Source of the DNA: Clostridium algifaecis
GTDB lineage: Bacteria > Bacillota > Clostridia > Clostridiales > Clostridiaceae
Reading direction: 5' to 3'
Assembly (NCBI RefSeq): GCF_017874415.1
Contig: NZ_JAGGLM010000002.1
Span: 1-64,000 of the forward strand
Length of the DNA: 64,000 nt
A program made the translations under genes and the position numbers. Each line of letters starts with the position of its first letter. Positions within the stretch are counted from its first letter, which is position 1. The notes beneath the pieces are model-generated. The model had not been told where the DNA came from and did not search any database. It worked only from the letters and a program-made list of their open reading frames with translations. This document shows positions 14,042-63,328 of this stretch, piece by piece.

Positions 14042-14896
14042 TTGGAAAAGATAGCTTTGCTAACTGATTCTACATGTGATTTACCAGATGATATTATAAA
14101 AGAATACAATATAAATGTAATGCATTACAGAATAATATATAAAGATAGGGAATATAAAGACAGAATAAATATAACTCCAGAATATGTTTATGAAAATTTA
14201 GATAAAGAAATACCAACATCCTCCATGCCAGCAGTGGATGAAATGGAAAATACATTTAATTCACTTGAAGATCAAGGATATACGCATGCTATAGTTGTGA
14301 CATTATCAAGTGGTCTTACGGGATTTTATAATGGGGTGAAGCTTGTAGCTGAAAATCATCCTAAAATATCAACTTATATATTTGATTCCAAATCCATATC
14401 AATAGGAGAAGGAATAATAGTTATGGAATGTGGAAAGCTTATAAAGAGAGGTATGGCTTTTAGGGATATAGTAAAAAAAATACCGGATATAAAAAGTAGA
14501 GTTAATTTATTTTTTATAGTAGGAACTCTGGAATATTTAAAAAAAGGTGGAAGAATAGGAAAAGTAGCAGGTACTATAGGAGAACTTTTAAATATAAAAC
14601 CTATTGTAGCAATAGATAACGACGATGGTAAGTATTATACATATGATAAGGTAAGGGGAAGAAAAAAATCTCTTAGCAGAATGATAGAGATAGCCAATAA
14701 AATTTTTGACCAAAAAAAGTGCCAGTTATATATGGTTCATGGTTACTGTCTTGAAGATACCAAGAAAATGTTTGATGAGTTAAAAAGACATAAAAATGTA
14801 ACTATATCTAAATTTTGTGGTTCGATAAGTCCAGTGGCAGGAGTACACAGTGGCCCTGGTCTCGTTGGGCTTGTAATCTTTGAGGAAAATGATTAA
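14042..14896 (+). CDS. DegV family fatty acid-binding protein
   Basis: A protein of about 284 residues of the DegV family, which presents fatty acids to the FakA kinase. The N-terminal motif TDSTCDLPDDIIKEYNI, the SSMPAVDEM and TLSSGLTGFYNG stretches, and the SPVAGVHSGPGLVGLV C-terminal motif are all present. The start is TTG at 14042 with AAGGAGG eight bases upstream; an in-frame TTG at 14018 precedes that site. No FakA kinase is nearby. Confidence 0.9.
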   Translation: MEKIALLTDSTCDLPDDIIKEYNINVMHYRIIYKDREYKDRINITPEYVYENLDKEIPTSSMPAVDEMENTFNSLEDQGYTHAIVVTLSSGLTGFYNGVKLVAENHPKISTYIFDSKSISIGEGIIVMECGKLIKRGMAFRDIVKKIPDIKSRVNLFFIVGTLEYLKKGGRIGKVAGTIGELLNIKPIVAIDNDDGKYYTYDKVRGRKKSLSRMIEIANKIFDQKKCQLYMVHGYCLEDTKKMFDELKRHKNVTISKFCGSISPVAGVHSGPGLVGLVIFEEND

Positions 14897-21972: not shown

Positions 21973-22018
21973 AAAAAAGAACCCACTATCTGGACTCTTT
22001 TGCCCAGACGGTCGGCTC
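21973..22018 (-). terminator. ZTP riboswitch expression platform (terminator)
   Basis: UCUGG (part of the aptamer's CCGUCUGGGCA) can instead pair with CCAGA, with outer pairing GAGCC...GGUUC, followed by CUUUUUUU. The overlap with the aptamer's 3' strand means ligand binding should prevent termination, an ON switch. Confidence 0.75.
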
Positions 22019-22066
22019 ATTCTTGTTATACTTCATGTGGTTTATTCCACTTCCGTCAGTTGTATA
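21999..22066 (-). promoter_or_regulatory. ZTP (pfl) riboswitch aptamer
   Basis: On the minus strand the leader reads ACUGACGG-AAGUGG-AAUAAA-CCAC, then a variable linker, then GAGCCGACCGUCUGGGCA. The P1/P2 halves and the conserved CCGYCUGGGCA pseudoknot segment match the pfl motif, which senses ZTP/ZMP and turns on purine and one-carbon genes. It sits upstream of the AICAR transformylase gene, whose substrate (ZMP) is the ligand. Confidence 0.88.
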
Positions 22067-22081
22067 ACCTATATGTATAAA

Positions 22082-28673: not shown

Positions 28674-28710
28674 AAAATAGCCATTAATTTGAGTAATGGC
28701 TATTTTTTAA
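28674..28710 (+). terminator. Terminator
   Basis: AAATAGCCATTA pairs with TAATGGCTATTT, followed by more T. Confidence 0.85.
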
Positions 28711-28752
28711 AAGATAAATAGTATATGGATATTTGGAGGAAAAATTGGTTCT

Positions 28753-29232
28753 ATGAATATAACATTAATTACAGTGGGTAAAATAAAAGAGAAATATTTA
28801 AAAGAGGCAATAGGTGAATACTCTAAAAGACTTTCAAGATATTGCAAGTTAAATATAGTAGAACTTCAGGACGAAAAAACTCCTGAAAATGCTTCAGAGA
28901 AAGATGAAAATATTATTAAAGAAAAAGAAGGAGAAAGAATATTAAAACATATAAATGACAGCATGTATGTAATAGCTTTAGATTTAAAAGGAAATATGCT
29001 AACTTCAAATGAGTTCTCTGATTTTATTGGAAATCTAGGACTTAGAGGAAACAGCAATTTGGCTTTTGTTATAGGAGGTTCACTTGGTATTTCCAGGGAA
29101 ATTCTAAATAGAGCTAATTACAAACTTTGTTTTTCAAAGATGACATTTCCACATCAATTATTTAGGGTGATACTTCTAGAGCAAATTTATAGAGGGTTTA
29201 AGATAATGAAAGGTGAACCGTACCATAAATAA
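28753..29232 (+). CDS. rlmH: RlmH, 23S rRNA pseudouridine-1915 N3-methyltransferase
   Basis: A 159-residue SPOUT methyltransferase that methylates pseudouridine 1915 in helix 69 of 23S rRNA. The N-terminus ITLITVGKIKEKYLKEAI, the SAM-binding knot FVIGGSLG and the SKMTFPHQLFRVILLEQIYRGFKI...GEPYHK end are canonical. The last codons are the staphylococcal SCC attachment position (GEAYHK). Here the same 3' end is copied 5.3 kb downstream as part of a 219-bp repeat, so the coding end is preserved by the integrated island. Confidence 0.95.
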   Translation: MNITLITVGKIKEKYLKEAIGEYSKRLSRYCKLNIVELQDEKTPENASEKDENIIKEKEGERILKHINDSMYVIALDLKGNMLTSNEFSDFIGNLGLRGNSNLAFVIGGSLGISREILNRANYKLCFSKMTFPHQLFRVILLEQIYRGFKIMKGEPYHK

Positions 29233-29433
29233 GGTAGCTTTTTGTATAATAGGTTTATATGAGCGGATTTGAGAGATTTGGTGGAAGTTAATTTGCACGA
29301 AAATTTTTATAAAAATATGATTTTAAATTATAAAATGTGTTATAATATAAATACAAAGAGAGAAAATAAAAACAGGATGCGGTCAACATCCTGTAGTATA
29401 CAATCTAGTTGCTTAGGCAACTGGTATTACTAT
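29215..29433 (+). repeat. 219-bp direct repeat, left copy (rlmH end plus small RNA)
   Basis: This stretch is identical, base for base, to 34506-34724. It begins GAACCGTACCATAAATAA, the last codons and stop of rlmH, and ends GGTATTACTAT inside the small RNA. Beyond the right end the two copies diverge but keep a similar terminator. The position at the end of rlmH matches an SCC-type attachment site. Confidence 0.95.
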
Positions 29434-29482
29434 AAGTATTAAATAGTAGCAACCACTTGCCGGTAGGAGCTACTATTTTTTT
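29352..29482 (+). ncRNA. Orphan antitoxin-like small RNA
   Basis: TGTTATAAT (extended -10) precedes a predicted start near 29352. The RNA has a stable hairpin ACAGGATG-cggtcaa-CATCCTGT, a second hairpin AGTTGC-TTAG-GCAACT and an intrinsic terminator (TAGTAGC...GCTACTA then T7). It is the same as the antitoxin RNA at the right repeat except for the terminator loop. No toxin reading frame faces it, so it looks like an antitoxin without a toxin. Confidence 0.6.
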
Positions 29483-29684
29483 GAGATTTTTTTTATGAGA
29501 ATACTATTTAGAAAAGCTAGCGTATAATCTAAAAAACTTATTAGTAATGGCTAATGAAAAAATTGGAATATTTATTAAGCATAAGTAATAAATAACAAAT
29601 ATGTATTAAGATTTATCTAATAAATACGATACTATAATTGGATGTATAGTTATATTAATGTAAAATATGAAAGGAATGTTCTAT

Positions 29685-30530
29685 ATGAAAAAATTTTTAA
29701 TTACTATATTAACTGTAAGTTTTGTTCTTTTATTTGGTAGTACGTCTTTCGCTGCTACAATAAATGAAACTGAACCTAATGACTTATCTAGCTAAGCCCA
29801 AAAAATACAAAGCAATAATGAGGATTATTCTAGTCCAATTAATGGACAGTATTATGGTCAGAATGTTGTAGTTGGAAATATTAAAGACACTACAGATCAA
29901 GATTGGTACAAGGTTTATTTACCTGCTGATAGTAATACTGTACTAGGTATTAATAGTACAGACCTTGATGGTACGGGCTATTTTGAAGTCTACGATGAAA
30001 ATTTGAATCTTATCTCTAGAATTCAAAATTTAAAAGATTTTTCAGTTATGGGGGCTACTCCATTCAAAGTAAATATTCCAAAATCGGGTAATTATTATAT
30101 TAAAGTATATTCTACTTCAAGAATAGGAGACTATAGATTTTTTATAGGTACACCTGATTATACAATAGACAGTTATACGTATCATCCTATAAATCCATTA
30201 ACATTGACAACGGAATCAGATTCTGTACAGGATACTTATGATCTTAGAAATATTGATTCTGTTTCTGACAAAGCTGTAGTTTATTCTGTTTCTTCAACTT
30301 ATCCAAGAATTAGTGATATATCAAATGATCAAATAAGTATTAAATTAGATAGTGATTATTCATGGATACCTATATATAGGTACTCAACTAATGAAAATAA
30401 TGTATCTGTTTATGATAAAAAACCTTTAAAAAGTTTATGGACATATAAACTTGAAGGAAATGTATCAAAATATATGGAATTTACACCTGAAGTTACATTT
30501 AATTATGTATATCCTGTATTACCTAAGTAA
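29685..30530 (+). pseudogene. Secreted pre-peptidase C-terminal (PPC) domain protein with premature stop
   Basis: ATG at 29685 (AAAGGAATG upstream) begins a signal peptide (FLITILTVSFVLLFGSTSFA) followed by the PPC motif NETEPNDLSS. The frame then meets TAA at 29793, with no shift, and continues as AQKIQSNNEDY...VVGNIKDTTDQDWYKVYL and on to 30530. A single CAA-to-TAA change would explain it. The C-terminal 170 residues contain no recognised domain. As it stands only a 36-residue peptide could be made unless the stop is read through. Confidence 0.8.
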
Positions 30531-30622
30531 TTTATAAATTTATTTTTTAATAGAATATATTTTTATAACTATACATTCTTTATAATAAACAGAAAAATAA
30601 ATTTATAGAGGGAGGAACATTT

Positions 30623-31402
30623 ATGTTTAAACTAAATAATTATATGTATCCATTATTTAATAAAAATTCATATAACAATTTTACTAATTGGAAAATTGAA
30701 TTAATGCAACTTAAAATGGATGCCTCTATCAAAAAATTAAATATATTATATTCTAACAATTCATCGGACAGCATTTCCATTAGCAATATAGCAAAACAGT
30801 ATAGTTTAAATCAAAAGACACTTTCGTCTGCTACAGAAACAAATGGTAAACCATTAAAAGAACTGGTAGCAAATAATAATGTACTTGATATCAGTAAAGG
30901 TTCTTATTATAAATTTAAGACGGATTCTGGTAAAATAGTTGTGCTTACAAGTGAAGATGGTACTTTCCTACATACGCAAACATATTATAAAAATTGTGGG
31001 TTACAACAATCAGATGAACGTGAACTAGATGAGAAATTTAGACTTATATCAGAACTTGCAGATGATAAAACGGCTCTTTGTGCAAGTATAGATTCTAGTG
31101 ATAGTGAAAATAAAAAAATATTAAACAATTTTGGAATTAAGCCAGGGTGGTTTGAAATTAAATATGGCGAAAAATCTAATAAATTTTATTTAACAGATGG
31201 TGGTCAGATATATCCAGAATATCAGATAAAAGACCAAACGGCTGCCTTTAAAACAGCTAACTGGTTCAAAGATGAGATAGGTTATTCAAGTAAGTCAAGA
31301 TTTATAATAGATGGGAAAGAATATAAATTAGATAAGAATGGATATTTAAATCTTCCTGATGGAGTAGATTGTGTTATGGAAAATATTAAAATTATAAAAT
31401 AA
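30623..31402 (+). CDS. Hypothetical protein, 259 residues
   Basis: A soluble protein with no signal peptide and no family I can name, with a strong GGGAGG site before its ATG. Two parts can be seen: a Ser/Asn-rich helical N-terminus (NILYSNNSSDSISISNIAKQ) and a beta-rich C-terminus (YYKFKTDSGKIVVLTSEDGT ... SRFIIDGKEYKLDKNGYLNL). The C-terminal stretch QTAAFKTANWFKDEIGYSSK recurs as a fragment at 53582-53695. The family has therefore been mobile or duplicated in this genome. Confidence 0.65.
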   Translation: MFKLNNYMYPLFNKNSYNNFTNWKIELMQLKMDASIKKLNILYSNNSSDSISISNIAKQYSLNQKTLSSATETNGKPLKELVANNNVLDISKGSYYKFKTDSGKIVVLTSEDGTFLHTQTYYKNCGLQQSDERELDEKFRLISELADDKTALCASIDSSDSENKKILNNFGIKPGWFEIKYGEKSNKFYLTDGGQIYPEYQIKDQTAAFKTANWFKDEIGYSSKSRFIIDGKEYKLDKNGYLNLPDGVDCVMENIKIIK

Positions 31403-31483
31403 ATATCTAAATAGAATAAATTAATATTAAATTTTTAAAATATTTGTATTAAATTCTTCTTACAATATATATTACAAAGAGGA

Positions 31484-31527
31484 AAAAGCTTCTGTTGATT
31501 TTAATTTCAATAGAGGTTTTATTTTTA
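31484..31527 (+). promoter_or_regulatory. Conserved leader hairpin ahead of the 31546 gene
   Basis: AAAAGCTTCTGTTGA (31484-31498) pairs with TCAATAGAGGTTTT (31507-31520) with a single bulge, followed by ATTTTTA and then the TTGGAGG ribosome binding site. The paralogous gene at 35077 has the same hairpin with compensating base changes, so the structure, not the sequence, is conserved. It could be an attenuator in the leader. Confidence 0.6.
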
Positions 31528-31545
31528 TATTTGGAGGATGATAAT

Positions 31546-31947
31546 ATGAGGATTATAAAAACACTAAAAGACATTGAATTACTAAAGGAGAAATCACAAA
31601 TAAACAAAGAGGTGTTGATTGAGATTGAGGAGTATTTTAAAAATCTTTATAACAACATAGGTAAGCCAGAGGGAAAGACAATCAATGATTTTTCACTAAA
31701 AGACTGTGGCATAATTGTGTACCTGGAAGATGAAGACAATGTATGGAATTTGGAGGAAATAGGGTTGAATCCAGAAGGCAACGGACTTTTAGGAGCAATA
31801 CCAGAATGGATTGATGAACAACTTATAGGAAAAAATGCTTTAGAAAGTATTTGTATAGTATGCAACAATGAATATGCTTTGAGCATATTTCTATTGAAAA
31901 ATAATCTGGATAATGAAGTTAAAAAGTGGATAGAAGATAGCAGATAA
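31546..31947 (+). CDS. Hypothetical cytosolic protein, 133 residues (paralogue at 35077)
   Basis: A small acidic alpha/beta protein: IKTLKDIELLKEKSQINKEV, then GKPEGKTINDFSLKDCGIIV, then an acidic loop and a C-terminal CIVCNNEYALSIFLLKNN helix-strand pair. I know no name for the family; size and acidity recall immunity proteins, but no toxin gene is adjacent. ATG at 31546 follows TTGGAGGATG; an earlier in-frame start has no site. A broken second copy at 35077-35475 lies just beyond the island's right repeat. Confidence 0.65.
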   Translation: MRIIKTLKDIELLKEKSQINKEVLIEIEEYFKNLYNNIGKPEGKTINDFSLKDCGIIVYLEDEDNVWNLEEIGLNPEGNGLLGAIPEWIDEQLIGKNALESICIVCNNEYALSIFLLKNNLDNEVKKWIEDSR

Positions 31948-31994
31948 ACACCTAATCTAAAATGTAAAAAATGGATTAGGTGTTTATTTTTATA
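31943..31994 (+). terminator. Terminator
   Basis: ATAAACACCTAATC pairs with GATTAGGTGTTTAT (14 bp), followed by TTTTATATTT. Confidence 0.85.
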
Positions 31995-32081
31995 TTTAAA
32001 AATAAGAAGTTAAAAAGCCTTAATTGCCAATATAGAGGTAATTAGGACTTTCACATTAATAAATGAAAAGGGGAGTAATAT

Positions 32082-32399
32082 ATGGCTAGAAAAGTAATAA
32101 AGGATACTAAATACTGCCGGATATTCAGTCAGGGGAAGATGTCAGGTGAAGAATACACATATTGTATTGAAAGGATATTTGTAAAAGCCAAGGACAGGGA
32201 AGAAATAAGATTCAGTCTGTACAAAGATACAATAATATCACTGCAAAGATATATTCCAAGGTCACTGGATGTAACGGAAGAAGAACTAATTGAATTAATA
32301 AAGCAAGCTATAGATAATTCGGTATTTTCAAAGGAATTCATAAAAAATTTGAACGAATTATTGAATCAGAAACAATCTAAAAGCCATGACAAAGGATAG
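32082..32399 (+). CDS. Hypothetical protein of mobile-element type
   Basis: A 105-residue basic protein with no recognised domain (MARKVIKDTKYCRIFSQGKM at the start, EEELIELIKQAIDNSVFS near the end). Its 3' end overlaps the RadC-like gene by 14 bases, so the two are co-translated. The pair, followed by a DUF960 remnant, resembles accessory operons carried by integrative elements and plasmids. Confidence 0.6.
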   Translation: MARKVIKDTKYCRIFSQGKMSGEEYTYCIERIFVKAKDREEIRFSLYKDTIISLQRYIPRSLDVTEEELIELIKQAIDNSVFSKEFIKNLNELLNQKQSKSHDKG

Positions 32400-32901
32400 C
32401 CGAAAGATGTTAAATAAAATTGATAAAAATATATCTAATATAGATAAGGTTGAAAATGTTCCCCGCAAAAGAATAGGCATAGTTTCAATAAAAATGGTAA
32501 GGGAGAAGAATATATTATTTGATATAAGAATTATAAAATCACCAAAGGATGCAGAAAAACTGGGGAGGATGTTCCTTGAAAATGTAGACAGAGAAAAGTT
32601 CATGATATGTTGTCTGGATACTAAAAGCAAGCCTACTTTGATTAATATTGTTTCTGTAGGTAGTCTTAATTTTTCTATTGTTCATCCAAGAGAAGTGTTC
32701 AAAGCTGCAATTCTTAGCAATGCAGCTTCCATAATGCTTTTTCATAATCATCCGTCAGGGGATTCGGAGCCATCTAATGAAGATATTAATATAACAGAAA
32801 GATTAAAAAAGTGTGGAAATATCATAGGTATCAATGTTATAGATCACATAATCATAGGAGATAGACAATACTATAGTTTTAAAGAAAAGGGGTTATTATA
32901 A
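32386..32901 (+). CDS. RadC-like JAB-domain protein
   Basis: A 171-residue protein whose C-terminal half is a RadC/JAB metalloprotease-like domain: MICCLDTKSKPTLINIVSVG, AAILSNAASIMLFHNHPSGD (metal motif HNHPSGD) and LKKCGNIIGINVIDHIIIG. The N-terminal helix-hairpin-helix found in chromosomal RadC is absent, as is usual for copies on mobile elements. The function of such proteins is unsettled. It is followed directly by a truncated DUF960 gene. Confidence 0.85.
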   Translation: MTKDSRKMLNKIDKNISNIDKVENVPRKRIGIVSIKMVREKNILFDIRIIKSPKDAEKLGRMFLENVDREKFMICCLDTKSKPTLINIVSVGSLNFSIVHPREVFKAAILSNAASIMLFHNHPSGDSEPSNEDINITERLKKCGNIIGINVIDHIIIGDRQYYSFKEKGLL

Positions 32902-32997
32902 ATGTTTAATAACGAAAGATATATAACTAGAGGAATACATGAGAATATAGATGAGGAAATTCAAATAGAAATGTGGAATATGTTAGTAATAAAATAA
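32902..32997 (+). pseudogene. Truncated DUF960 family gene
   Basis: The 31-residue frame (MFNNERYITRGIHENIDEEI, then QIEMWNMLVIK) matches the start of the intact 106-residue DUF960 protein at 55681 (MFDNKRYITIGIRKNINKKI), then stops. The sequence passes directly into a serine recombinase tail, so a deletion fused two genes here. Confidence 0.75.
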
Positions 32998-33322
32998 ACT
33001 AAAGAGCAATACATTAGAGGATGGTTTTCAGGAGGTTTCATATAAGTTTGTGAAGAGCATACTTTCGACCTTTGGTAAAATGCTTTCAGAGCAAACTACA
33101 AGAGAACAACAGAAAAGATTACTGCATATGCTAATTTCAAAAATAACTATTAATAAAGATAGGGATATAGACTCAATAGAGCTAAATATAAATGAAAACT
33201 TAATAATGTATCTAAATAATGGAGGAGAACTAAGCCCAGAAAAAGGCGGCGGTTCTCCTTCTTATTTTGTTGCTAGGAGTGTTATGATGATAAATCCTGT
33301 GGATATTAGGATATGTATTTAA
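32993..33322 (+). pseudogene. Large serine recombinase, C-terminal remnant
   Basis: An open frame without a proper start encodes a stretch typical of the end of large serine recombinases: FGKMLSEQTTREQQKRLLHM, LISKITINKDRDIDSIELNI and NGGELSPEKGGGSPSYF. The catalytic N-terminal resolvase domain and the zinc-ribbon region are missing. Ccr recombinases that move SCC elements belong to this enzyme class, which suits the rlmH location. The element can no longer move by itself. Confidence 0.7.
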
Positions 33323-33409
33323 TAATTAATAGAGTTCAAATGGATAGTATTCTTATAATTTATGTTATACTTAATTTAAAATAACGGACATTTAATGGAG
33401 AAATTTAAG

Positions 33410-34465
33410 ATGAAAAAAGATGAAATGATAGCTTCCATGAAAGAAAAAATAGATAAAAAAATATATTCCTTGGATATAGAAGATATAAAGACAACAGCAC
33501 TATATAGTATTATTGATGAATTACTTTCTTATGAATTTTTAGTTGATATTAAATCAATGAATGAAATAGAGAAATTGAGAATCTACAAAATGTTTAATGG
33601 AAATATAGATTGTGATGTCTCTTTAAGAAGCATAATAATAGCTAAGCAAGCTTATTCATATCTATACGACTATGAAATTATGCCTCAATTTAACGGAGGT
33701 TATAGTCCATATAAGTTTTGTTTAAAAAGCAAAGAAAAAGATAAAGTTATAGAATATCGTGCTGATACAATGACCAGTGCATTTACTACATTTAAAGAAT
33801 TTATAAGAAATGAATCTTTAGATGACAGCAGCATTCCTAAACCATGGATTGGGTGCAATAATAGAGATTATTGGTTATATTATGTTAGTGATAGAATTAA
33901 TAAAGGCGAAAAATTACCAAACGAAATGAATGCTTTTTTGCGTCTTAACCATACTATTGGCAATATTATTCCAGTTCCTTGCAACTTTAATAAAGCAAGA
34001 AGTAGTAATCCTCTAAATAATGAAAATGATAAAAATAAAAGAAATAGAAGAAATGCCGAATGGGATTATTGGGATTTGACTTTGTGGGCAATTTACTGTT
34101 GGTTCGAGAATAATGGACTAAAAAATATACTTAGAACAACTAATGAAAAAATATTCAAGAAAAATGAAGATAAAATTAAAAAAAGATGGGAAAATATATT
34201 TAAAATGCCTACTGTAGAGGTATGGCTAAAGAGTTTCGGTCAAGAAAGAGAAGGATGGAATCAATTTGTAAGTCAAAATTATTTTCAAAATTACATTGAA
34301 GAAGATGGCAAACCTAGTATGTTTTGGGAAAATCATTCGTTTGCTAATCCGTTACCGCCAAAGACGTTAGATATTAAGCAAATACTAAGAGAAATTAATG
34401 ATAGGATATGTTTTCGTAGTAATGCAATATCACAAAGCTTTCATAATAAAAACTTTGAAAAATAA
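33410..34465 (+). CDS. Hypothetical protein, about 351 residues, last gene of the island
   Basis: A soluble, Trp- and Asn-rich protein. A recognisable central block is LRLNHTIGNIIPVPCNFNKA followed by EWDYWDLTLWAIYCWF, resembling a widespread but uncharacterised family of accessory-region proteins (DUF6994-like as far as I can judge). No nuclease or ATPase motif is evident. GGAG spacing favours ATG 33410 over ATG 33395. It stands next to the right repeat as cargo of the rlmH island, so a defence or immunity role is conceivable but unsupported by motifs. Confidence 0.65.
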   Translation: MKKDEMIASMKEKIDKKIYSLDIEDIKTTALYSIIDELLSYEFLVDIKSMNEIEKLRIYKMFNGNIDCDVSLRSIIIAKQAYSYLYDYEIMPQFNGGYSPYKFCLKSKEKDKVIEYRADTMTSAFTTFKEFIRNESLDDSSIPKPWIGCNNRDYWLYYVSDRINKGEKLPNEMNAFLRLNHTIGNIIPVPCNFNKARSSNPLNNENDKNKRNRRNAEWDYWDLTLWAIYCWFENNGLKNILRTTNEKIFKKNEDKIKKRWENIFKMPTVEVWLKSFGQEREGWNQFVSQNYFQNYIEEDGKPSMFWENHSFANPLPPKTLDIKQILREINDRICFRSNAISQSFHNKNFEK

Positions 34466-34505
34466 GAATTAAATTAAAAAGATTATCCATTACAACCGAT
34501 ACGGA

Positions 34506-34724
34506 GAACCGTACCATAAATAAGGTAGCTTTTTGTATAATAGGTTTATATGAGCGGATTTGAGAGATTTGGTGGAAGTTAATTTGCACGAAAATTTTTA
34601 TAAAAATATGATTTTAAATTATAAAATGTGTTATAATATAAATACAAAGAGAGAAAATAAAAACAGGATGCGGTCAACATCCTGTAGTATACAATCTAGT
34701 TGCTTAGGCAACTGGTATTACTAT
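34506..34724 (+). repeat. 219-bp direct repeat, right copy
   Basis: Identical to 29215-29433, including the rlmH 3' coding end (GAACCGTACCATAAATAA) but with no rlmH body before it. It marks the right boundary of the 5.3-kb island. It contains the promoter and most of the antitoxin RNA. Confidence 0.95.
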
Positions 34725-34780
34725 GTTTATTAAATAAAAAATAGTAGCGTCCAATTGCGAGTCGGGGCTACTATTTTTTT
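34643..34780 (+). ncRNA. Type I antitoxin RNA
   Basis: Extended -10 TGTTATAAT (34629-34637) predicts a start near 34643. The RNA folds into ACAGGATG/CATCCTGT and AGTTGC/GCAACT hairpins and ends at TAGTAGC...GCTACTATTTTTTT, which overlaps the 3' end of the convergent toxin gene. The two transcripts must therefore be complementary at their 3' ends, as in other holin-like type I toxin systems. Confidence 0.65.
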
Positions 34781-34869
34781 ATTTCTTTAATAAGTAAAAC
34801 TATAAATGTTAACAGTGAAATGAGGAATAATCCTGCTTCAAAAAGTAACATTAAGATGTCATTACTCAT
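34771..34869 (-). CDS. Holin-like type I toxin peptide, 32 residues
   Basis: A single-membrane-span peptide: MSNDILMLLFEAGLFLISLL then TFIVLLIKEIKK. This is the profile of the putative holin-like toxin family (a short start, one hydrophobic helix, a Lys-rich end). GGGAGGTGAT lies five bases before the ATG, an unusually strong site. The gene converges on the small RNA and shares its bidirectional terminator. It is below the length limit of usual gene calling. Confidence 0.8.
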   Translation of the reverse strand: MSNDILMLLFEAGLFLISLLTFIVLLIKEIKK

Positions 34870-34941
34870 TGCATCACCTCCCTTCAACAGGGATGAGTGA
34901 TACCAGTAGCCCACATGCAACGTATTCAATTGTACTAATAA

Positions 34942-34970
34942 ATTATAGCATGTCTAGCAGGATAATTCTA
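34942..34970 (-). promoter_or_regulatory. Promoter of the toxin mRNA
   Basis: On the minus strand TAGAAT, 17 bases, then TATAAT lies about 75 bases before the toxin start. The leader contains a CCCT-gttga-AGGG hairpin touching the ribosome binding site, which could restrain translation. Confidence 0.55.
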
Positions 34971-35015
34971 TAGTTAGCATTATCTGTTGATTTCAAATAT
35001 ATATTATAAAAAAGA

Positions 35016-35057
35016 AAAGCATTTGTTGATGTAGAGTCAATGAATGCTTTATTTTTA
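35016..35057 (+). promoter_or_regulatory. Leader hairpin of the broken paralogue
   Basis: AAAGCATTTGTTGA (35016-35029) pairs perfectly with TCAATGAATGCTTT (35037-35050), followed by ATTTTTA and then the same TTGGAGGATG as at 31531. Compared with the 31484 copy, several pairs have changed on both sides. Confidence 0.6.
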
Positions 35058-35076
35058 TATTTGGAGGATGATAAAA

Positions 35077-35475
35077 ATGAGGATTATCAAAACATTAAGA
35101 GATATTGAACTGTTAAAGGAGAAATCAAAAATAAACAAAAAAGTAATTCAGGAAATTGAAGAGTATTTTAAAAATTTTTATAACAACATAGGTAAGCCAG
35201 AGGGGAGAATAATCAAGGAATTTTCACTAAGAGACTGCGGCATAATTGTATATCCGGAAGATGGAAAGAATGTATGAGACTTGAAGAAAATAGGACTAAA
35301 TCCAGAAGACAATGGACTCTTAGAAACAGTTCCAGAGTGGATTGATGAACAACCTATAGGAGAAAATACTTTAGAAAGCATTTGTATAGTGTGCAAAAAC
35401 GAATGTGCTTTGAGTATATTTTTATATTCTAAAACCTTAACTGCTGTATTTGCAGTGGTTAAGGTGAGAATATAA
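35077..35475 (+). pseudogene. Broken paralogue of the 31546 gene
   Basis: The product begins MRIIKTLRDIELLKEKSKIN, closely related to the 31546 protein, but TGG has become TGA at 35276 (V-stop-D-L-K-K where the other has VWNLEE). The frame then continues through ESICIVCKNECALSIFLY, after which a different tail follows (SKTLTAVFAVV) that contains a 13-bp inverted repeat. It is a pseudogene by a nonsense change plus a replaced 3' end. Confidence 0.8.
35434..35465. repeat. Inverted repeat at the end of the pseudogene
   Basis: ACCTTAACTGCTG and CAGTGGTTAAGGT can pair over 13 positions (two G-U) around a 6-base loop. On the minus strand it is followed by TTTTAGAATATAAAA. It may be a weak terminator for the IclR gene or the edge of the rearrangement that replaced the pseudogene's end. 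Confidence 0.45.
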
Positions 35476-35624
35476 ATGTATTTTCCATGCTATTTTTTAA
35501 GCTAAAATTACTATTGAATTTTTGTTGACTTTTTATAGTTGGTCTATAACTTTTATTTAATTTATATATTTTTTTCACAGGCTTAAATCATCATATGATC
35601 ATTTTTGTATATGTAATATTACAT

Positions 35625-36374
35625 TCAGTCAATATTGGAATTTTGAATCTGATCCTTAGCATCTAACAATAGTTGAATTGCTAATTTTTCTTTTTCTTTG
35701 TTGATTCGAAAAGTTGGGATACTTATACTAAGTGCAGCGGTTGTGTTGTTTTTTAGTTGTATGGGTACAGCATAACAGCATATGAATTCGGTAACTTCCT
35801 CATATTCTTTTGCAACATTAGTTTTCCGTATAATGTCTAACTGTTTTTTTAAAGTATGGAAGTCTGTTATAGTATTCTTTGTTATAGGCTTAAGTCCGTT
35901 AGGATAGAGTGATTTTATTTTTTCGATATCATACTGGGCAAGTATTGCCTTTCCAAGAGCCGTACAGTAAGCTGGTATTCGTTTACCTATGTATGAAATT
36001 AGTCGTATATCCATATCTTTTTTAGGATCTTCTTTTAATATATATAGAACGTTGTTCCCATCAAGTATACCCATCTGACATGTTTCATTTATATTATTTA
36101 CAATGTTTTTCATAACTTTTTGTATGAAATCAAGTATATATTTGTTTCTTGAGTAAGATGAACCTATTCTAAATGCAGAAATTCCAATTGAATATTTTAA
36201 AGTTCCCTTCTCAATTGATACAAAATTGGATTCAAGCATAGTCTGCATAATTGGATAAATGGTACTTTTTGGTATATCGAGTGTTTCAGAAATCTCTGTC
36301 AATGTAAGTCCATTTGGATTTGTAGACAAGAGATTTAATATATTTAATACTCTTTGTGTGGGTTTATGTTCCAT
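35625..36374 (-). CDS. IclR-family transcriptional regulator
   Basis: A 249-residue IclR regulator: N-terminal winged helix (QRVLNILNLLSTNPNGLTLTEISETLDIPKSTIYPIMQTM) and a C-terminal effector domain with the family features GKRIPAYCTALGKAILA and EEVTEFICCYAVPIQ. It is divergent from the sugar-acid operon and probably controls it; E. coli yjhI holds the same place next to yjhHGF. ATG is at 36374; no strong ribosome binding site is evident. Confidence 0.92.
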   Translation of the reverse strand: MEHKPTQRVLNILNLLSTNPNGLTLTEISETLDIPKSTIYPIMQTMLESNFVSIEKGTLKYSIGISAFRIGSSYSRNKYILDFIQKVMKNIVNNINETCQMGILDGNNVLYILKEDPKKDMDIRLISYIGKRIPAYCTALGKAILAQYDIEKIKSLYPNGLKPITKNTITDFHTLKKQLDIIRKTNVAKEYEEVTEFICCYAVPIQLKNNTTAALSISIPTFRINKEKEKLAIQLLLDAKDQIQNSNID

Positions 36375-55654: not shown

Positions 55655-56001
55655 GTTTTAAGGAAAAGGGGTTATTATATATGTTTGATAATAAAAGATA
55701 TATAACAATAGGAATACGGAAAAATATAAATAAAAAAATACAGATGGAAATATGGAATATAATTGATAGATTAAAATCAAAAGATAATTTCCATTTGGAT
55801 TATCTACAGGTATTTGAATTAAAGGAAATAGAAAATACTAGAGAACTTAATGAATTTTATAACCAGAAGATAGTTCATTTTCAAGAACAGCATGAATATA
55901 AAGAAAAAATATTTATAAAAGTAAATAATCCAGTCAATTCAAAGATATATGTCATAGATGACTCAAAGCACACCATAATGATGGAAGCTTCTGAATACTA
56001 A
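55655..56001 (+). CDS. DUF960 family protein with upstream radC tail remnant
   Basis: The intact DUF960 gene starts at ATG 55681 and makes 106 residues (RYITIGIRKNINKKIQMEIW ... IFIKVNNPVNSKIYVIDDS). DUF960 proteins are encoded on plasmids and integrative elements and have no settled function. Bases 55655-55680 still encode SFKEKGLL, the last residues of a RadC-like protein such as that at 32386, so this gene has lost its radC partner. The leader AAGGAAAAGGGGTTATTATA is nearly the same as at 32878. Confidence 0.8.
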
Positions 56002-57067: not shown

Positions 57068-57384
57068 CATCAAAGAAAAGCGATAATGGAGACAAGTAAA
57101 AAAAATATTTCACCAAAAGTGAGCTGGGGACAGTGTGAACCCGACGGCAGAGTTTTTTTGAATAACACTCCGGAGTTGCAAACTGAAATATTTGCAGATC
57201 TGTAATTTAAACTAATTGTTTGAGACAGGCTCAGGTAAAGTAGGAGCGTCGTATTCCATGCGTTATTTGGATACCAGTAGTAGCTGGAAAGAGACCAATA
57301 TGATTATGATATGGTAAATTAGGTGGCACCACGGATAAAAGCGTCAATTCGTCCTATTATTAAAGATGAATTGACGCTGCTTTT
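57068..57384 (+). promoter_or_regulatory. T-box leader (tRNA-sensing) of asnB, probable Asn specifier
   Basis: A leader of about 300 bases contains stem I features (GAGCTGGGGACAG and CCGACGGCAGAG near 57120-57155), the T-box core AGGTGGCACCACGG (57321-57334) that contacts the tRNA end, and a terminator (AAAAGCGTCAATTC with GAATTGACGCTGCTTTT, 57337-57384). An AAC triplet in GAATAACACTCC (57160-57171) lies where the specifier is expected, which would mean tRNA-Asn sensing and induction when Asn is short. Confidence 0.85.
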
Positions 57385-63245: not shown

Positions 63246-63252
63246 AATTCAT

Positions 63253-63328
63253 AAATAAAAATAGTAGCTGCCAATTGTCAGAGCGGCTACTATTTTTTAT
63301 TTTAATAAGAATACTTTAAATGTTAAAT
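63253..63328 (-). pseudogene. Remnant of a second toxin 3' end plus shared terminator
   Basis: Read on the minus strand, 63328-63253 closely matches the end of the toxin gene at 34771: TTTAACATTTAAAGTATTC, CTTATTAAAATAAAAAATAG and the TAGTAGC...GCTACTA hairpin with a similar loop (CAATTGG). The toxin's 5' half and the facing small RNA promoter are gone; the larA-like gene now uses the hairpin as its terminator. Confidence 0.65.

What the first reader, a model, noticed from the sequence alone, without database searches (positions are those of the whole stretch)
29215..34724. Island at the 3' end of rlmH bounded by a perfect 219-bp repeat
The 3' coding end of rlmH is the integration site of staphylococcal SCC elements. 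Here the same codons begin a 219-bp perfect direct repeat flanking 5.1 kb of accessory genes that include the tail of a large serine recombinase, the enzyme class of Ccr. This suggests an SCC-like element outside staphylococci. The repeat is far longer than an SCC core site, so the element either brought its own copy of the rlmH-end/small-RNA region or the ends have been homogenised by recombination.
Basis: partly seen in the sequence, partly recalled or inferred. Interest (0 to 1): 0.75.

Follow-up and report, generated by a model that had tools for sequence, protein, structure and literature searches.

The report
Decayed SCC-like cassette at clostridial rlmH
A worn-out relative of the gene cassettes that carry methicillin resistance in staphylococci sits at the same chromosomal docking site in a clostridium, with most of its integrase deleted, and the long repeat around it is mostly the gene of an RNA antitoxin rather than a docking site.

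Summary
In detail: a perfect 219-bp repeat (29215-29433 = 34506-34724) starts in the last rlmH codons and flanks 5,072 bp. The SCC-like reading holds. The recombinase tail (32993-33319) is 75% identical to an intact recombinase whose best curated family is CcrB, then CcrC. Of 25 strong Ccr-like genes in relatives, 14 lie 8-19 kb downstream of rlmH on the same strand. In 25 of 27 named loci the rlmH-end core follows the recombinase within 3.5 kb. The window also keeps a backbone gene and a DUF960 start joined directly to recombinase codon ~447, so it is a ccr-deleted relic. Only 18 of the 219 bp are the core; the rest is a spacer plus the promoter and 5' part of a TxpA/BsrG-type antitoxin RNA, whose toxin survives only at copy 2. 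The two tandem modules are otherwise about 80% alike, so the perfect identity looks like recent homogenisation. rlmH cassettes outside staphylococci are already published; the clostridial family with a toxin-antitoxin module beside the core is a variant. Mobility, transcription and toxicity were not tested.

The parts
28753..29232 (+). rlmH, the integration target; its last codons and stop are the attachment core
   Evidence: Pfam PF02590 206.7 bits
29215..29232 (+). core site 1 (rlmH side), GAACCGTACCATAAATAA
   Evidence: exact match to core 2; pattern has three exact matches in the genome
29215..29433 (+). perfect repeat, copy 1: core, spacer, promoter and 5' part of the antitoxin RNA
   Evidence: 219/219 to copy 2
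29353..29482 (+). antitoxin RNA copy 1, no toxin ORF beside it; 5' end estimated from TGTTATAAT at 29338-29346, read by eye
   Evidence: similarity to copy 2 and to other species; fold z -4.3; no toxin ORF found
29685..30530 (+). cargo pseudogene: signal-peptide-like start, then an in-frame stop at 29793-29795 (read by eye)
   Evidence: sequence; downstream stretch has no Pfam match
30623..31402 (+). cargo ORF, 259 aa, unknown
   Evidence: no family over a cut-off
31546..31947 (+). c19 gene, 133 aa; in G010 and G012 it follows the toxin-antitoxin pair next to rlmH
   Evidence: 80-82% aa identity to those two
32082..32399 (+). c3, small backbone gene of the cassettes
   Evidence: cluster found in 14 loci; 58.7% identity to L082
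32386..32901 (+). RadC-like JAB-domain gene
   Evidence: PF04002 146.6 bits
32902..32985 (+). 5' end of a DUF960 gene, cut short
   Evidence: PF06124 26.0 bits, cut-off 25; residues 1-29
32986..32992 (+). junction of the internal deletion
   Evidence: DUF960 match ends at 32985, recombinase match begins at 32993
32993..33319 (+). 3' end of a Ccr-like large serine recombinase, residues 447-554, no catalytic domain
   Evidence: 75.2% identity to L082 recombinase; CcrC model 16.8 bits for 33050-33319
33395..34465 (+). cargo ORF, 356 aa, between recombinase and right core; unknown
   Evidence: 2 other genomes of 206 with weak matches
34476..34505 (+). arm left of the right core; in most intact relatives this arm is an inverted repeat of the element's left end, here it is not
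   Evidence: score 6 against shuffle mean 5.7
34506..34523 (+). core site 2 (right end of the cassette)
   Evidence: exact match to core 1
34506..34724 (+). perfect repeat, copy 2
   Evidence: 219/219 to copy 1
34644..34780 (+). antitoxin RNA copy 2; 5' end estimated by eye
   Evidence: fold z -4.1; overlaps the 3' end of the toxin transcript
34771..34869 (-). 32-aa TxpA/BsrG-type (Hol_Tox) toxin gene
   Evidence: PF16935 26.4 bits, cut-off 23.3; Rfam BsrG below gathering, 26.2 of 55 bits
35077..35439 (+). broken second copy of c19 after the toxin-antitoxin pair
   Evidence: 74% aa identity to the island copy; 248/300 in DNA

Best explanation
The island is a decayed SCC-like cassette: the relic of an element that a Ccr-like large serine recombinase once integrated at the 3' end of rlmH. 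Shown by sequence: rlmH-end cores at both ends in one orientation, the recombinase 3' end, a backbone gene, and an internal deletion that joins a DUF960 start to the recombinase tail. Inferred: it can no longer move by itself, because the catalytic part of its recombinase is gone and this genome gave no Ccr-model match at the threshold used. In this genus the rlmH-end core is usually followed by a type I toxin-antitoxin pair and then gene c19. The window holds two such modules in tandem: one at rlmH (antitoxin only, toxin missing) and one after the cassette (toxin and antitoxin). Most likely the cores mark the recombinase's sites, the modules are left ends of successive cassettes or an old flank, and the 219-bp perfect identity is a recent gene-conversion or crossover patch over two older, about 80%-identical modules.
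For: Intact relative's recombinase: best NCBIfam CcrB 404.8 bits, CcrC 348.8, next XisF 159.1. Tail 75% identical; deletion junction between DUF960 and the tail. 14 of 25 strong Ccr-like genes lie 7.9-19.4 kb downstream of rlmH on the same strand. 35 further exact cores in rlmH orientation and 0 opposite in 41 loci. Core within 3.5 kb after the recombinase in 25 of 27 named loci. Relatives carry Cch-type or D5-type helicases and DUF960. Homogenisation: 219/219 against 248/300 in c19 and 51/71 just beyond the block; copy 3 shares only the middle block, 122/124, with spacer 45/77. Same layout in G012.
Against: No empty site or excised circle from the same species was available. The left and right arms of this element do not form the inverted repeat seen in 8 of 11 intact single elements, though 3 of those 11 also lack it. 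Within the genus only 4 of 13 genomes have a further core near rlmH, one of them with a mismatch, and none has a CcrB-model match over 370 bits, so the local family is mostly relics. Genome-wide in the genus the short core pattern at up to 1 mismatch is not above its backwards control (16 against 15 matches). The intact recombinases are below the Ccr cut-off of 900 bits (0 of 206 genomes over it). Whether the toxin-antitoxin pair belongs to the cassette or to the chromosome is undecided.
Confidence: 0.82

Rival explanations
1. The island entered by homologous recombination: a circle or incoming fragment carrying its own core-antitoxin segment crossed over with the resident copy next to rlmH, so the repeat marks a crossover and not a recombinase event.
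For: The identical stretch (219 bp) is far longer than the core, the c19 gene is duplicated too, and the left end does not match the right end. Three copies of the antitoxin segment exist in this genome.
Against: Cores at both ends, the recombinase tail and the 25-of-27 link between recombinase and core show that such elements move by site-specific recombination. The two modules differ by about 18% in c19.
Confidence: 0.3
2. An ordinary tandem duplication of the rlmH-end/toxin-antitoxin/c19 region into which unrelated genes later fell; no cassette.
For: Two copies of both the antitoxin segment and c19 flank the middle genes.
Against: The middle holds c3, a DUF960 start and the recombinase tail, which sit together in cassettes of relatives, and the right core has the same orientation as in 35 other cases against 0.
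Confidence: 0.05
3. The perfect identity is an assembly artefact.
For: The genome is in 53 contigs and no reads were available.
Against: The contig runs through both copies with different outer flanks, and the identity stops abruptly at both sides. G012 has the same layout without perfect identity.
Confidence: 0.05

Closest known systems
Staphylococcal cassette chromosome (SCC), including ccr-less pseudo-SCC
   Same: rlmH 3' end as site, repeats carrying the rlmH end, Ccr-like recombinase, DUF960; Cch-type helicase in intact relatives
   Different: Recombinase well below the Ccr cut-offs, this copy cut down to its last 109 residues; core TACCATAA here instead of TATCATAA; type I toxin-antitoxin pair beside the core
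Enterococcus cassette chromosome, ECC (PMC6222049, abstract and passages read)
   Same: Insertion at the rlmH 3' end, large serine recombinases, direct repeats, attR with inverted repeats
   Different: ECC has ccrAB pairs and att repeats of about 50 bp; here one recombinase remnant and a 219-bp repeat
SCC-like islands in other Bacillota (PMC10061031, passages and methods section read)
   Same: Downstream of rlmH, second end found by the last ~12 bp of rlmH, tandem composites, large serine recombinases, COG3378/D5 or DUF927 helicases
   Different: Its C. difficile and C. perfringens examples are at ssrA; no toxin-antitoxin pair was mentioned in what I read
TxpA/RatA and BsrG/SR4 type I toxin-antitoxin systems
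   Same: Small Hol_Tox peptide with a convergent RNA overlapping the 3' end of the toxin transcript
   Different: Placed beside an SCC-type core, with antitoxin-only extra copies; transcripts not shown here

Membership tests
SCC / cassette chromosome | Integration at the 3' end of rlmH | tested here: met
   Core 1 is the end of rlmH at 29215-29232
SCC / cassette chromosome | Direct repeats containing the rlmH-end site at both ends | tested here: met
   Exact cores at 29215 and 34506
SCC / cassette chromosome | Intact ccr recombinase gene(s) | tested here: not met
   Only residues 447-554 remain; no match to the CcrB model at E 1e-70 in this genome, 6 of 9 candidates scored. So it is SCC-like at most, a ccr-less relic
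SCC / cassette chromosome | Recombinase of a Ccr allotype | tested here: not met
   One intact relative scores CcrB 404.8 and CcrC 348.8 against cut-offs of 900; 0 of 206 genomes over the CcrB cut-off
SCC / cassette chromosome | Inverted repeats at the element ends | tested here: inconclusive
   8 of 11 intact single elements above the shuffle 95th percentile, window not (score 6); own left ends mean 10.3, other elements' left ends 8.1, shuffles 5.7
SCC / cassette chromosome | Cch-type helicase and DUF960 | tested here: inconclusive
   Both found in intact relatives; the window keeps only the DUF960 start, helicase absent
SCC / cassette chromosome | Excision as a circle and an empty site | not testable with these tools
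   Needs the strain or sister strains
TxpA/BsrG type I toxin-antitoxin | Hol_Tox-type small hydrophobic toxin | tested here: met
   PF16935 26.4 bits over 23.3
TxpA/BsrG type I toxin-antitoxin | Antisense RNA overlapping the 3' end of the toxin mRNA | tested here: inconclusive
   Layout and folds fit, but promoter-like sites in the region were fewer than in shuffles (29 against 43.2), Rfam BsrG is below gathering, covariation 1 of 20 pairs

The most novel reading that the evidence does not exclude
Clostridial SCC-like cassettes carry a type I toxin-antitoxin pair beside the attachment core as an addiction module for the site, and the window shows an antitoxin-only left end kept identical to the resident pair by gene conversion, so that its RNA silences the resident toxin in trans: an anti-addiction device at an integration hotspot.
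Probability: 0.15. Interest if true: 0.7.

Novelty: new variant of a known kind. Interest (0 to 1): 0.5.

Why it matters
It extends the rlmH cassette system, best known for spreading methicillin resistance, to a family of clostridia in which intact and decayed copies can be compared. It also points to a toxin-antitoxin pair beside the attachment core that could stabilise the hotspot or bias which cassette stays, which can be tested in laboratory strains.

Tried and rejected
Rfam over the window: 2 gathering-level hits, neither in the repeat; BsrG only below threshold. DNA searches of the plasmid and phage collections with 28700-36000: matches lay only in the rlmH and radC stretches, no copy of the island. 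A 198-kb element ending at copy 3 was considered and rejected: on this contig, nine marker proteins matched only in the island, except one DUF960 paralogue at 55.7 kb, and no core with 0-1 mismatch other than the three. Cargo ORFs of 259 and 356 aa: no family over a cut-off; the latter had 2 weak relatives in 206 genomes, so no structure was predicted. Core pattern genome-wide in 13 genus genomes: not above its backwards control at 1 mismatch. RNA covariation: 20 consensus pairs over 28 distinct sequences, 1 with a two-sided change, 8 of 560 cells unpaired: too conserved to prove a fold. A shared group II intron remnant after copies 1 and 3 was suspected by eye; the alignment there is too poor to claim it.

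Selection and bias: of the 41 loci are the genus genomes returned (G004 with only 517 bases after rlmH); 8 are other family genomes taken for rlmH similarity or a second rlmH; 20 were chosen for a recombinase-tail match, except G035, taken for its toxin-antitoxin match. One locus (L090) does not include rlmH. The 13 CcrB-model matches below 370 bits were not placed relative to rlmH, except three. Named loci partly come from the same genomes, so one search is not fully independent. Only one intact recombinase was scanned against NCBIfam.
Full report
Observation. The perfect repeat is 219 bp, 29215-29433 and 34506-34724, and begins with the last codons and stop of rlmH; 5,072 bases lie between the copies. 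The 16-base pattern GAACYGTACCATAAAT has three exact matches in this 2.96-Mb genome, all on one strand of one contig: both ends of the island and position 232,840.

What the island is. The recombinase tail is longer than its ORF suggests: 32993-33319 aligns to residues 447-554 of an intact 554-aa recombinase from a relative (L082) at 75% identity. That intact protein has Resolvase, Recombinase and zinc-ribbon domains. Its best NCBIfam family is CcrB (404.8 bits), then CcrC (348.8), XisF (159.1) and CcrA (111.6); all are below their cut-offs (900 for CcrB and CcrC), so it is a Ccr homologue and not a staphylococcal allotype. The window tail by itself matches CcrC weakly, 16.8 bits. Directly before the tail, 32902-32985 encodes the first residues of a DUF960 protein (26.0 bits, cut-off 25.0; residues 1-29). 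In intact elements the usual order is c4, c3, sometimes c11, DUF960, c9, a helicase, further genes, recombinase, cargo, right core. The window keeps c3, a RadC gene, the DUF960 start and the recombinase end; an internal deletion took what lay between.

Site in relatives. Of 206 family genomes, 35 have a CcrB-model match at E 1e-70 or better, 38 matches in all, none over the cut-off. Of the 25 matches above 370 bits, 14 are downstream of rlmH on the same strand with gaps of 7.9-19.4 kb (one, G067, with an internal stop); 1 (G175) is adjacent and convergent; 1 (G121) is on a contig that begins inside the rlmH end; 9 are on contigs without rlmH, and 8 of these 9 have an exact core after the recombinase in the same orientation. 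For the 14, an exact core after the recombinase was found in 12 within the fetched stretch; for G115 it lies 3.8 kb on (L135), and for G087 none was found. In 41 loci, 35 exact cores beyond the first rlmH lie in rlmH orientation and 0 in the opposite one, in 695 kb; one of the 35 is the end of a second rlmH gene (L041). In a named collection, 27 loci came back, among them C. tertium, C. gasigenes, C. cuniculi, C. sulfidigenes and C. thermobutyricum; 25 of 27 have an exact core within 3.5 kb after the recombinase, 32 cores on the recombinase strand, 0 on the other, and the reversed pattern gave 0. L082 carries a helicase with DUF927 and the Cch helix-turn-helix, L091 a D5-type helicase, L087 a full DUF960 gene. 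Left of the right core many elements carry an inverted repeat of their own left end: 8 of 11 intact single elements are above the shuffle 95th percentile; means are 10.3 for the own left end, 8.1 for other elements' left ends and 5.7 for shuffles. The window scores 6, as do 3 of the 11 at 5-8.

What the 219 bp contain. After the 18-bp core come a 77-bp spacer and 124 bp with a TGTTATAAT promoter element (by eye, 29338-29346) and the 5' part of an RNA that folds better than shuffles (z -4.3 for copy 1, -4.1 for copy 2, -4.4 for copy 3, terminator included). On the other strand beside copy 2 is a 32-aa ORF over the Hol_Tox cut-off, with a promoter-like site at 34956-34929 and a terminator-like site at 34685-34663; promoter-like sites in this AT-rich region are not enriched over shuffles, so that one counts for little. 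The layout is that of a TxpA/BsrG-type pair. Copies 1 and 3 lack the ORF; the same peptide occurs unchanged in G007, G010 and G012. The pair lies within 300 bp of the rlmH end in 8 of 13 genus genomes including this one, 1.2 kb away in G003, and was not found near rlmH in the other 4. Gene c19 follows it in G010 and G012, with partial matches in G001, G003 and G011. In other genera 5 distal cores (at most 1 mismatch) have the module within 300 bp.

How the repeat arose. The window has two modules in tandem: core, antitoxin, two cargo genes, c19 at rlmH; and core, antitoxin, toxin, broken c19 after the cassette. The two c19 copies are 248/300 identical, not much closer than either is to G010 or G012 (236-240/300). 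The block just beyond the repeat is 51/71. Yet core, spacer and promoter/RNA block are 219/219. Copy 3 shares only the middle block (122/124) and has a diverged spacer (45/77); the best other species reaches 118/124 there. Such mosaic identity fits gene conversion or crossover among older copies, not the integration itself. Of 63 pairs of cores within loci, only 9 have right flanks more alike than the best of 376 random pairs, and the window (233) and the duplicated rlmH of L041 (283) stand far above the rest (40-88.5). G012 has the same layout (rlmH, core, pair, c19, cargo, core, pair), and its ends match as an inverted repeat (score 12), which favours the pair being a left-end module. Whether it is that or an old chromosomal flank stays open.

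Literature. Cassettes at rlmH outside staphylococci are known: ECC in enterococci (PMC6222049, abstract and passages) and SCC-like islands in various Bacillota, bounded by the last ~12 bp of rlmH and including tandem composites (PMC10061031, passages and methods section); there the C. difficile and C. perfringens examples were at ssrA. In the listings of my searches I saw no paper on clostridial rlmH cassettes or on a toxin-antitoxin pair at the core; the library holds open-licence papers only and I read three of them in part, so this does not show absence. A review of clostridial type I systems (PMC6563280, passages) has no mention of rlmH and says that an in silico search found TxpA-like sequences in few Clostridia. 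The core motif TATCATAA of ECC and SCCmec (PMC6222049) recurs in many clostridial cores; the window has TACCATAA.

Verdict. A real, decayed SCC-like cassette in a clostridium, with a clostridial family behind it; the long repeat is mostly an antitoxin gene, recently homogenised. Mobility, transcription and toxicity were not tested.

Noticed in passing
G000 contig C2:232837-233111 (L101:17837-18112), outside the window: Third copy of core and antitoxin, without toxin, 198 kb from copy 2 and away from rlmH, followed by a stretch that looks by eye like the start of a group II intron.
   Followed up: partly
L104 (G010:C1:1304154-1304548) and L103 (G012:C9:29487-29909): Further core plus toxin-antitoxin units away from rlmH; the core in G012 is degenerate.
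   Followed up: partly
L041:4184-4660 and 14174-14650: Two full rlmH genes in tandem about 10 kb apart in G034, the region between bounded by long repeats.
   Followed up: no
L033 (G009:C12): rlmH broken before its last codons, a 717-aa-frame recombinase match directly after it, and a second diverged rlmH-like stretch about 13 kb on.
   Followed up: no
L128 and L131: Another arrangement: a Ccr-model-matching recombinase convergent with and directly next to rlmH.
   Followed up: no
window 55681-56001: A full DUF960-like gene outside the island.
   Followed up: no
window 63252-63326: Short fragment similar to the toxin-antitoxin region.
   Followed up: no
window 57074-57359 (+) and 21995-22073 (-): T-box leader and ZMP/ZTP riboswitch, both over the Rfam gathering score.
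   Followed up: no
NZ_CP149720.1 (plasmid collection), MT836284.1 and OR844989.1 (phage collection): rlmH-like DNA in a C. difficile plasmid record (annotated rlmH) and in unannotated phage records.
   Followed up: no
family-wide: DNA similar to 34503-34930 was matched in 155 of 206 family genomes at E 0.001, many weakly; the strong ones suggest this type I family is common here.
   Followed up: partly
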